Position numbers and translations under genes: made by a program
Assembly: GCA_008973525.1 (NCBI GenBank)
Contig: WACJ01000523.1
Location: 1,860,001-1,924,000, forward strand
Origin: Stenopsyche tienmushanensis
Taxonomy: Eukaryota > Arthropoda > Insecta > Trichoptera > Stenopsychidae
Reading direction: 5' to 3'
DNA: 64,000 nt
Part shown: piece by piece, positions 2,917-37,116 of the stretch
Layout of the letters: every line of letters starts with the position of its first letter
How positions within the stretch are numbered: the first letter of the stretch is position 1
Notes under the pieces: model-generated
Seen by the model: only the letters and a program-made list of their open reading frames with translations
Database searches by the model: none
Told to the model about the DNA's origin: nothing

Positions 2917-5233
2917 TCAATTCGTAAAAGATGCAAATCCAAATGAATTTCCTAAGATTATGCCGAACATTGATAGAAATAATACGTCAATATATCTCGC
3001 GTTATTCGACGTTGAGCTATTAGGTTTTCGCGGCGCGTCAGAAATTTCATTTTCACGCTCCTTTTCTTTAATCTTCTCTTCGATCATTTTCACTATCGTT
3101 TCTTCTTTTTGGGCTAATCCAACCGCCTGCTCGATTGTTCGCATTAACGGGAAATTGTCGTTGCTCTTCTTCGGAATCAAAAGGATGACTTTATCGTTCT
3201 GAATTACGTACTCGGATTTAGCGGTGCTTTCGTTGAGTCGTTTAAAATCTTCCTCCGTGGCTGAAAATAAATCGAGAGTCAAATAGATGATTCAAAAGAT
3301 TGAATTAAATCGATCGAATCAAAATTGTATCCACCTCTTTTTATATTCAAACTGGGTAATATCTCATTGAAGAACGGGTTCGTTTGGACTTTCTTCAGAC
3401 TGCTGTGATATTCTTTGTAGATGTCCGTTTCCGGGGGACAGTTTCCTCGGAAGTCGTCGGTATCTATACTCCACACCATTAAACCTCGGAGTTTTTTATC
3501 GATTGCAAATCTGTAATCAGAATTTGTTAAGGCGACGTCGTGCGATTTATATAACGTTAATATGGCGATTGGACTGACTGTATTTTGGCTGCGATGGAAC
3601 GCTGGCTATCGTACGTAATGAATTTATCTCCATTAAAAGCATACGCAGTTTTGGTTCTATCATCCCACATTTGGCTCCATCCCGAGGATTTATTCGAGAG
3701 CTCCAAACAAATCTATAAAATCAGATTTAAATTAAATGAATGACAAGAAATTAAAATTGGTAATATTTTTGTATCACACGAGGATAGTTTCAGAATTATC
3801 TGACTGATATTAAATAAGGAACCAATATCAAAGCCAGCCAAAATATATAGTAGATAGGCGCCACGTTTGTTCACAATCGAATTAATCCAAGTTTTTACAT
3901 CGATTCATAACCATGGATGAAACATGCATCCATCAATTAATGGCTATTTTGAGGAGATCGACGGTTCTTATTATAAACAGGGTGTCGACGCTATTGAACA
4001 TCACTTGGAAACTGTATTGAGAAATAATGATACTTCTATGACTGCCGTCGTACCTCATGATATCCCATGAAGCCTGCTTCTTTTGTGTACGGTCCTTGGA
4101 AACCAGCCGGTTGAACTTTCGTTACTCCTAACACAGGAGCACTTGAAGATCCTGCATTTGGACCGGTTTCGAAAGTTGTATCCCTCAAAAATGTTCTTCC
4201 GTATAATGGCAATCCCATGACTAATTTTTCTGGCGGTGCACCCATTTGCAGCATATAGTTGATAGTGTATTGCTAATGTTATAAAAGTCATTATATTAAC
4301 AACGATGAACGATAATATATTTATGATATTAATATATTTTATGCATACCACGCTGAGTACATCTCCATCTTGTTCTCCGTACAATGGCGAATTCGATCCG
4401 ACAATACCGTCCCATGTACCATGATAATCATAGCACATCATATGTATTAAATCTAAATATTTGGATAATTCAACGACATCATAACTAACGTCAATTGTTT
4501 CTTTGCTAGCGCCGAGTGCCGCTGTTAAGATAAAATTGTGTTTTCTAAATTCAGTTTTCAACTCCTGAAAAATAAATATATGGTATGTTTAATAAAAATT
4601 GATCAAAAACACAATATTTTGACGATATTTAAATACCTTAACGAGAGTAACAAAATTCTGTTTATCCTGCGGAGATCCTCCTCTTTTTCCTGGATACTCC
4701 CAATCCAAATCCAAGCCATCAAAGTTATATTTTCTGCAAATTTATTAAAGATTAATATAATATCGCATTGTAATATTCACATTTATATGGAGCGTTCAAT
4801 ACTTGAGAATGGCCACGACTGAATTAATGAATATTTGACGGCGCGTTGGATTTTCAGCAAGCTTTGAATAGTTCATGGAGCCTTCGTTCCATCCCCCGAT
4901 GGCCAACGTCACCTTCAAATGGGGATATCTAGATTTCAGGCCAGTCGCTTTTTCATATCCTCCTTTGCCGTAATCATCTTTCAGATCTTGCCACGCGTCT
5001 GTGAATATAAAAAATATAGTGAGCCGATACAAGATTAATTGAAAATCTTTGCAAAATATTATATTTACCTAGAACTCTTATACTACTGCCGGATGCATTC
5101 AAACCGGCAAATGAATACACTAAATGGGTGCATAGTGACGGATCTAGGTCGTCGATGGTAAACGCACCCTCGTTCTGTCTATATGCTGCCCATGTTGCTA
5201 TATAGCACACCACGACCCGATCATGACTAGGAC
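2917..5233 (-). CDS. GH18 chitinase with intact catalytic motif and hydrophobic C-terminus (5' exon missing)
   Basis: Eight exons on the minus strand: 5233-5069, 4998-4803, 4733-4637, 4564-4349, 4272-4054, 3712-3579, 3510-3335 and 3260-2917. All introns are GT-AG and the phases agree. The predicted enzyme cleaves beta-1,4 bonds in chitin. Family motifs in order are AIGGWNEGS, FDGLDLDWEYP with the catalytic Glu, MMCYDYHGTWDG, GLPLYGRTF and GLMVWSIDTDDF. The last exon adds a charged region rich in Lys and Glu and then a hydrophobic C-terminus (DVLFLSMFGIILGNSFGF) with almost no cytoplasmic tail, suggesting a GPI anchor or a tail membrane anchor rather than a chitin-binding domain. The first exon found starts in phase 1 at GPSHDRVVVCYIATW, so a signal-peptide exon lies further upstream; I did not find it. 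One donor, CA|GTCAGT at 3579, is chosen because only it keeps the frame. Paralog of the gene at 28729-37116. Confidence 0.9.

Positions 5234-37116: not shown

What the first reader, a model, noticed from the sequence alone, without database searches (positions are those of the whole stretch)
2917..37116. GH18 pair: one active chitinase, one catalytically dead paralog
Both genes share exon phases and the GH18 fold. One keeps DGLDLDWEYP and GGWNEGS; the other has DGLSIAWSHP and GGYLQNS, losing the catalytic Glu and the paired Asp residues, yet it keeps an open frame of 511 codons with good splice sites. Loss of catalysis with a retained fold is known in insect imaginal disc growth factors and vertebrate YKL-40, but this pair is membrane-anchored and lies in one cluster, so it looks like a separate case of enzyme-to-binder change.
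Basis: partly seen in the sequence, partly recalled or inferred. Interest (0 to 1): 0.75.

Follow-up and report, generated by a model that had tools for sequence, protein, structure and literature searches.

The report
Dead chitinase copies beside live one
In what is probably a caddisfly genome, one chitin-cutting enzyme gene sits between two intact copies whose cutting residues are gone and whose membrane attachment has changed, so they may hold or sense chitin instead of cutting it.

Summary
Gene B (28729-37116, minus) is an intact nine-exon, 511-residue GH18 gene whose DGLDLDWEYP motif reads DGLSIAWSHP; gene A (2917-14434) keeps the active site. Intron phases agree at all eight introns. Both are insect Cht2 (group VII): with the Cht2 of the caddisfly Arctopsyche grandis they form a clade (98/99), apart from the genome's own IDGFs. 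The finding is larger than reported. A third copy, C, starts 153 bases left of the window and is intact (473 aa) but reads DGLDLFWLYP, with the Glu-to-Leu change of mammalian CHI3L1 and OVGP1 rows. Dead Cht2-type paralogs also occur in three nymphalids and one Anopheles; one origin for the caddisfly and nymphalid ones is rejected. Of the Cht2-like sequences compared, 122 of 134 active ones end in a GPI-signal-like tail and 0 of 6 dead ones do; B has a transmembrane-like helix with a basic tail, C no anchor (post hoc rule). Main cleft aromatics survive, so a non-cutting chitin binder at the cuticle assembly zone is my best reading. Expression, binding and selection after the loss are untested.

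The parts
28729..37116 (-). Gene B: Cht2-type GH18 paralog with lost catalytic residues, 511 aa; exons 37116-37029, 33319-33161, 33089-32897, 32676-32595, 31161-30949, 30838-30635, 30567-30437, 30201-30032, 29024-28729
   Evidence: all introns GT-AG, frame open, Pfam PF00704 E=8.8e-82
32634..32663 (-). Gene B beta-4 motif DGLSIAWSHP (second Asp to Ser, third Asp to Ala, catalytic Glu to Ser)
32971..32991 (-). Gene B beta-3 motif GGYLQNS (GGWNEGS in A)
28729..29024 (-). Gene B last exon: transmembrane-like helix (19-residue Kyte-Doolittle mean 3.06) and basic 12-residue tail QSKSKRFESTVL
37029..37116 (-). Gene B exon 1, signal-peptide-like
   Evidence: hydropathy only
2917..14434 (-). Gene A: Cht2 with full active site, 545 aa; exons 14434-14344 (candidate), 5233-5069, 4998-4803, 4733-4637, 4564-4349, 4272-4054, 3712-3579, 3510-3335, 3260-2917
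   Evidence: 65% identical to Arctopsyche grandis chitinase 2; deviates at 0 of 74 near-invariant columns
4691..4720 (-). Gene A catalytic motif DGLDLDWEYP
2917..3260 (-). Gene A last exon: GPI-signal-like hydrophobic end without charged tail
   Evidence: hydropathy rule, not a GPI predictor; under the stricter rule A falls outside this class

Best explanation
Tandem duplication of the group VII chitinase Cht2 in a caddisfly lineage gave one enzyme with its active site intact (A) and two non-catalytic paralogs (B in the window, C just outside it). B and C are retained, functional-looking genes, not pseudogenes. Most likely they act as chi-lectin-like proteins in the same place as Cht2, the apical cuticle assembly zone: they hold chitin chains in a GH18 groove whose main aromatic residues survive but which can no longer cut, B from a transmembrane anchor with a short basic cytoplasmic tail, C as a secreted protein. 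This could shield, align or sense nascent chitin, or compete with A for it. Shown: intact frames, lost catalytic residues, Cht2 ancestry, changed C-termini. Inferred: absence of enzyme activity (from residue loss), chitin binding, site of action, and the shielding or competing role.
For: Motif loss and intact frames. Clade of A, Arctopsyche, B and C at 98/99 within Cht2. B is changed at 16 and C at 11 of 74 columns that are near-invariant in 137 active Cht2-like rows (at least 50% identical to A, Glu present); A at 0. Groove residues kept in B and C: Trp of beta-1, Tyr-Asp of beta-6, Trp of beta-8; C also keeps the Trp of GGW; the genome's two IDGFs lose the beta-3 and beta-8 Trp (IDGF identity). 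Tail: 122 of 134 active against 0 of 6 dead Cht2-type proteins GPI-signal-like. B omega 0.11, 2dlnL 17.6 against 1; in simulation a frame of this length stays open in 3.8% of runs at 0.05 and 0.2% at 0.1 neutral substitutions per site. Drosophila Cht2 accumulates at the apical surface of tracheal cells and is needed for the epidermal cuticle assembly zone (passages of PMC7414880 and PMC4738247).
Against: No transcript, protein or binding evidence. B has also changed other groove positions (GGW Trp to Tyr, the Tyr of YGRTF to Asn, the Met of M-x-Y-D to Thr), so its sugar site may be gone. In C the changes are not concentrated in the active-site motifs (2 of 14 against 9 of 60, Fisher p=1.0) and omega=1 is not rejected for C (2dlnL 3.6). 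C intron 3 uses a GC donor. The six dead proteins stand for only three or four independent events. No ortholog of B or C was found outside this genome, though the searches are incomplete. One paper holds that Cht2, having no further domain, is likely not tied to one site in the matrix (PMC7414880, passage).
Confidence: 0.5

Rival explanations
1. B and C are functional but no longer bind chitin: the GH18 barrel serves as a scaffold for a protein or other ligand, a growth-factor-like or receptor-like use.
For: B has lost more active-site residues than the CHI3L1 rows; B carries 12 NXS/T sequons against 5 in A; basic cytoplasmic tail.
Against: W(beta-1), YD(beta-6) and W(beta-8) stay in B and C, while the genome's IDGFs have lost W(beta-3) and W(beta-8).
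Confidence: 0.25
2. B (or C) is a decaying duplicate that has not yet acquired a stop.
For: Transposon-like sequence in introns (one search shows a weak reverse-transcriptase match in the long intron of A; the frames tested in B introns had no Pfam match); GC donor in C; omega for C not separable from 1.
Against: Nine open exons with matching phases in each; the ten-residue motif of B differs from that of A at five residues, so the change is not a single recent hit, while a neutral frame of this length is mostly lost by 0.05 to 0.1 substitutions per site; B omega=1 rejected (with the caveats on saturation and time before the loss).
Confidence: 0.12
3. B belongs to the insect IDGF family (group V).
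For: Lost catalytic Glu; holding B alone with the IDGFs is not formally rejected (AU p=0.0625, lnL 22.3 lower).
Against: Free tree places B with A, C and Arctopsyche at 98/99; B+C with IDGFs rejected p=0.004; B has five residues fewer than A, not about 24 more, after the beta-4 motif; the genome has two separate IDGFs on C76; exon phases equal those of A.
Confidence: 0.02
4. B and C are dominant-negative partners: they pair with the Cht2 protein A or take its substrate.
For: Same cluster and strand, same ancestry.
Against: Nothing here bears on whether Cht2 proteins pair; not searched.
Confidence: 0.1

Closest known systems
Insect group VII chitinase Cht2 (Drosophila Cht2, CHIT2_DROME, row P0211)
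   Same: Sequence clade, layout (signal, one GH18 domain, no chitin-binding domain), the F/Y-P-L-(L/M)-R-T-I region near the C-terminus
   Different: B and C lack the catalytic Glu and third motif Asp; B has a transmembrane-like tail and C none instead of a GPI-signal-like tail
Mammalian CHI3L1 (YKL-40) and OVGP1
   Same: GH18 domain with Glu lost and groove aromatics kept; C has the same Glu-to-Leu change as rows P0062 and P0268
   Different: Separate origin from an arthropod Cht2; B is membrane-spanning; binding untested here
Insect imaginal disc growth factors (group V)
   Same: Dead GH18 proteins of insects, cuticle-related in Drosophila (PMC4738247, passages)
   Different: Different clade in the trees; B and C lack the group V extra loop; more groove aromatics kept
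Nymphalid Cht2-like proteins with MWKYP (P0206 Nymphalis io, P0216 Euphydryas editha, P0218 Vanessa cardui)
   Same: Cht2-type, Glu lost (to Lys), GPI-signal-like tail absent
   Different: One shared origin with B and C rejected, AU p=2.75e-6
Inactive catalytic domains of Cht10 (group II)
   Same: Loss of motif residues inside a chitinase; this genome has two such units, C27_4 and C27_5, beside three with full motifs (one C27 exon best matches group II structures)
   Different: Described as domains of one multi-domain enzyme (PMC9933517, passage), not separate genes

Membership tests
GH18 (Pfam PF00704) | Match above the curated cut-off | tested here: met
   A 328.9, B 275.7, C 300.0 bits against 29.6
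Active GH18 chitinase | DxxDxDxE with the catalytic Glu | tested here: not met
   B DGLSIAWS, C DGLDLFWL; met in A
Insect group VII chitinase (Cht2) | Position inside the Cht2 clade | tested here: met
   A, B, C and Arctopsyche at 98/99 within a 98/98 clade of 39 rows holding Drosophila Cht2
Insect group VII chitinase (Cht2) | Chitinase activity | not testable with these tools
   Residue loss predicts none in B and C
IDGF (group V) | Clusters with IDGFs | tested here: not met
   Free trees; held with IDGFs, B alone AU p=0.0625, B+C p=0.004
IDGF (group V) | About 24 extra residues between beta-4 and alpha-4 (PMC6835396, passage) | tested here: not met
   B is five residues shorter than A just after the beta-4 motif, C equal to A
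Chi-lectin (YKL-40-like) | Catalytic Glu lost, groove aromatics kept | tested here: met
   All four Trp/Tyr positions checked in C; in B the GGW Trp is Tyr. Which residues line the groove is recalled, not computed
Chi-lectin (YKL-40-like) | Binds chitin oligomers | not testable with these tools
   none
Pseudogene | Broken frame or splice sites, no constraint | tested here: not met
   Intact frames; 23 of the 24 introns GT-AG and one GC-AG, in C; constraint supported for B, inconclusive for C

The most novel reading that the evidence does not exclude
Cht2 is a recurrent source of pseudoenzymes: in at least three insect lineages a tandem or nearby Cht2 copy lost catalysis and, at the same step or soon after, gave up its GPI-type anchor for secretion or a true transmembrane helix. 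In this caddisfly that gave a membrane-spanning chitin receptor or tether (B) and a soluble chitin binder (C) working beside the active enzyme in cuticle assembly.
Probability: 0.3. Interest if true: 0.7.

Novelty: new variant of a known kind. Interest (0 to 1): 0.52.

Why it matters
In the passages I read, dead insect chitinases appear as IDGFs and as domains of Cht10. Group VII was described as a single gene in each of the species compared in the Anopheles gambiae survey (PMC3097210, passages) and as absent from the three sternorrhynchan Hemiptera considered (PMC9933517, passages). A trio with two dead members in one locus, parallel losses in butterflies and a mosquito, and a matching change of membrane anchor would show that enzyme-to-binder change happens repeatedly from the very chitinase that organises the cuticle assembly zone. 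It gives a natural experiment: same fold, same locus, three kinds of C-terminus, one member with catalysis.

Tried and rejected
IDGF membership: disfavoured by tree and by the missing group V loop, though B alone with IDGFs gives AU p=0.0625. One shared origin of the dead Cht2 copies of caddisfly and nymphalids: rejected, AU p=2.75e-6. Order of duplications within the caddisfly clade and relative to Arctopsyche: not resolved (B+C sister 89/62; held together, A+P0001+B p=0.295, A+P0001+C p=0.095, A+B+C without P0001 p=0.207, A+B p=0.308), so whether catalysis was lost once or twice is open. Alternative catalytic exon hidden in B or C: no second intact motif on the strand of the genes. NCBIfam gave only a sub-threshold bacterial match. 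Orthologs of B and C elsewhere: no hit (103 hits; best 120 of 212 listed) looks like one, but these searches sample words: the Arctopsyche Cht2, whose match to C is 32-48% by exon, is not among the 120 listed, so absence means little. The hydropathy rule (at most 8 residues after the run) gave 118 of 134 and put A itself outside the end-anchored class; I replaced it by a rule on tail charge after seeing that, so 122 of 134 is a post hoc count. By the values printed, 0 of 6 dead proteins pass either rule.

Full report
1. The observation. Splicing gene B by hand gives nine exons, 37116 to 28729, every intron GT-AG, and an uninterrupted 511-residue protein with a hydrophobic N-terminus and a very hydrophobic C-terminal helix. 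Gene A has eight clear exons from 5233 to 2917 and a candidate signal-peptide exon at 14434-14344, whose donor (CAG|GTTTGT) has the same form as that of B exon 1 (it was the better of two candidates printed by a hydropathy and donor scan of 5300-17300, so it is less sure than the rest). Entry phases are 0,1,1,2,0,0,0,2,1 in B and C, and the exon lengths of A give the same series. Both match PF00704 far above its cut-off. A and B are 45.5% identical over 468 positions. The beta-4 motif of B keeps the first Asp but has Ser, Ala and Ser for the second Asp, the third Asp and the catalytic Glu.

2. The genome. The window is contig C520:1860001-1924000 of a 451-Mb assembly with 549 contigs. A is 65% identical over 98% of its length to 'putative chitinase 2 isoform X2' of Arctopsyche grandis, a hydropsychid caddisfly, and 76% over 349 tree columns. 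Some beetle Cht2 proteins also reach about 60-65%, but over some 71% of the length; lepidopteran ones reach about 49-54% over nearly all of it (best 120 of 2651 hits listed). The genome is therefore probably a caddisfly; no name was available.

3. A third copy. The PF00704 search showed further exons just left of the window. Locus L009 holds gene C, C520:1859847-1854893, minus strand, nine exons, 473 residues, no stop, with one GC-AG intron (AAG|GCAAAT) and otherwise GT-AG introns. Its motif is DGLDLFWLYP, so the third Asp and the Glu are lost, while GGWSEGS is kept. The Glu-to-Leu change is that of the CHI3L1 row P0062 (DGLDLAWLYP) and the OVGP1 row P0268 (DGLDLFFLYP). The order on the contig is C, A, B, all on one strand within about 42 kb. 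The two own-genome searches show no other B-like locus (the tool calls its counts lower bounds).

4. What family. A 68-row quick tree and a 49-row careful tree, both built without the columns of the two active-site motifs, put A, Arctopsyche, B and C in one clade (99 SH-aLRT; 98/99), inside a Cht2 clade (98/98) with Drosophila Cht2. The rows are those I selected from the three protein searches and the genome. The genome's two IDGF genes (C76a, C76b; motifs DGLDLAWQF and DGIDLAWQF) lie far away; one exon of each matches solved IDGF-2 (E=7e-17 and 4e-20) and the mosquito protein AAEL001965 better than any chitinase. Holding B+C with them is rejected (p=0.004); holding B alone with them costs 22.3 log-likelihood units but gives p=0.0625, not formally rejected. 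B also lacks the group V insertion after beta-4 (insertion described in a passage of PMC6835396). The relation of B to C and the timing against Arctopsyche stay open. Of the 28 other units assembled, 27 have a readable motif and 5 lack the Glu: C, the two IDGFs, and C27_4 and C27_5 in a run of five units on C27, one exon of which best matches group II (Cht10) structures.

5. Other dead Cht2 copies. Among 312 GH18 domain rows with a readable motif from the listed hits of the three protein searches, 23 lack the Glu. By their place in the tree, four are of Cht2 type: three nymphalids (P0206, P0216, P0218) and the second domain of Anopheles marshallii P0105. The fewest changes of this state over the 49-row tree is four; from the tree I read them as the IDGFs, B+C, the nymphalids and P0105, so three within Cht2. 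Euphydryas editha has both an active (P0119) and a dead (P0216) copy, listed with the same longest-contig length of 11046649, which suggests but does not prove one contig. These database proteins are predictions; P0105 may be two genes joined by annotation.

6. What was lost and kept. Of 74 columns near-invariant (98% or more) in 137 active Cht2-like rows, A deviates at 0, B at 16 and C at 11. In B the changes are concentrated in the two motifs (7 of 14 against 9 of 60, Fisher p=0.009); in C they are not (2 of 14 against 9 of 60, p=1.0). The Met of M-x-Y-D is changed in 6 of 6 dead Cht2-type rows and kept in 135 of 137 active ones; over all database rows with the positions readable, 279 of 290 with Glu and 7 of 22 without Glu keep it. 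The Trp of beta-1, Tyr-Asp of beta-6 and Trp of beta-8 are kept in B, C and the four other Cht2-type dead rows; the GGW Trp is lost in B and P0105. That these residues line the substrate groove is recalled knowledge of GH18 structures.

7. The C-terminus. With a hydropathy rule, 122 of 134 single-domain active Cht2-like proteins end in a hydrophobic run with at most one charge after it, as GPI signals do; 4 have a charged tail and 8 no run. A falls in the first class, B in the second (tail QSKSKRFESTVL), C and the four other dead proteins have no run. The naive Fisher p of 2e-6 ignores relatedness; three or four independent events underlie the six. An earlier rule gave 118 of 134 and placed A outside. 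No GPI predictor was available.

8. Selection. Over 419 codons the mismatch of A and B at positions 1, 2 and 3 is 0.413, 0.289 and 0.628, the pattern of coding constraint. A codon model with one omega per branch gives A 0.05, B 0.11, C 0.27; omega=1 is rejected for B (2dlnL 17.6) and not for C (3.6). Synonymous sites are saturated (branch lengths of 3 to 10 neutral changes per codon) and each branch includes time before the loss, so this is support, not proof, of constraint after the loss; one omega for all three branches fits nearly as well (lnL -4294.5 against -4292.0). A neutral frame of this length remains open in 3.8% of simulations at 0.05 and 0.2% at 0.1 substitutions per site, while the motif of B alone differs from A at five residues.

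9. Mechanism. In Drosophila, Cht2 accumulates at the apical surface of tracheal cells, and its knockdown in larvae disturbs the cuticle assembly zone; Idgf6, which is inactive, is needed for matrix stability (passages of PMC7414880 and PMC4738247). A GPI-type anchor on Cht2 would fit the apical accumulation; [quoted passage not shown] The simplest reading of B and C is that they occupy the same niche without cutting: B as a transmembrane tether or sensor, C as a soluble binder. B's sugar site is more altered than C's, so for B a non-chitin ligand remains a serious rival. The nearest solved structures by sequence are OfChtIV (6jm7, 6jm8).

10. Print record. Ten searches of the held library listed no paper whose title or opening abstract describes inactive group VII paralogs or a caddisfly Cht2 cluster; some lists were capped (12 of 187, 15 of 25, 9 of 10). 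I read passages only of PMC3097210, PMC6835396, PMC9574080, PMC5891080, PMC4738247, PMC7414880 and PMC9933517. Most subscription papers are not held, so this is weak evidence of novelty.

11. Verdict. It is a new variant of a known kind (dead GH18 lectin-like proteins). The binder function and expression remain to be shown.

Noticed in passing
window 18698-20986 and 24258-26561, minus strand: Two large single-exon frames (762 and 767 aa), both leucine-rich-repeat proteins with 9 and 10 LRR_8 stretches, look like a tandem pair lying between genes A and B.
   Followed up: partly
window 6702-6965, minus strand: Reverse-transcriptase fragment (RVT_1, E=4.5e-5, below the curated cut-off) inside the long first intron of gene A.
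   Followed up: partly
window about 31260-32500, minus strand: Intron 4 of gene B holds what looks by eye like a degenerate transposon remnant; two frames tested had no Pfam match.
   Followed up: partly
G000 contig C82:314600-360000: Array of ten further GH18 units with full DxxDxDWE motifs, several with near-equal exon spacing and scores, one inverted, plus a partial eleventh near 302000.
   Followed up: no
G000 contig C122, locus L001:1429-2562: GH18 domain in one uninterrupted frame of 455 aa (LDGIDLDWEFP), very long branch in the tree; may be an intronless insect gene or foreign DNA.
   Followed up: no
G000 contig C76, loci L016 and L017: Two IDGF genes about 10 kb apart, in line with a Trichoptera duplication of IDGF reported in PMC6835396.
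   Followed up: partly
protein rows P0119 and P0216: The butterfly Euphydryas editha has an active and a dead Cht2-type protein listed with the same longest-contig length, perhaps a parallel cluster.
   Followed up: no
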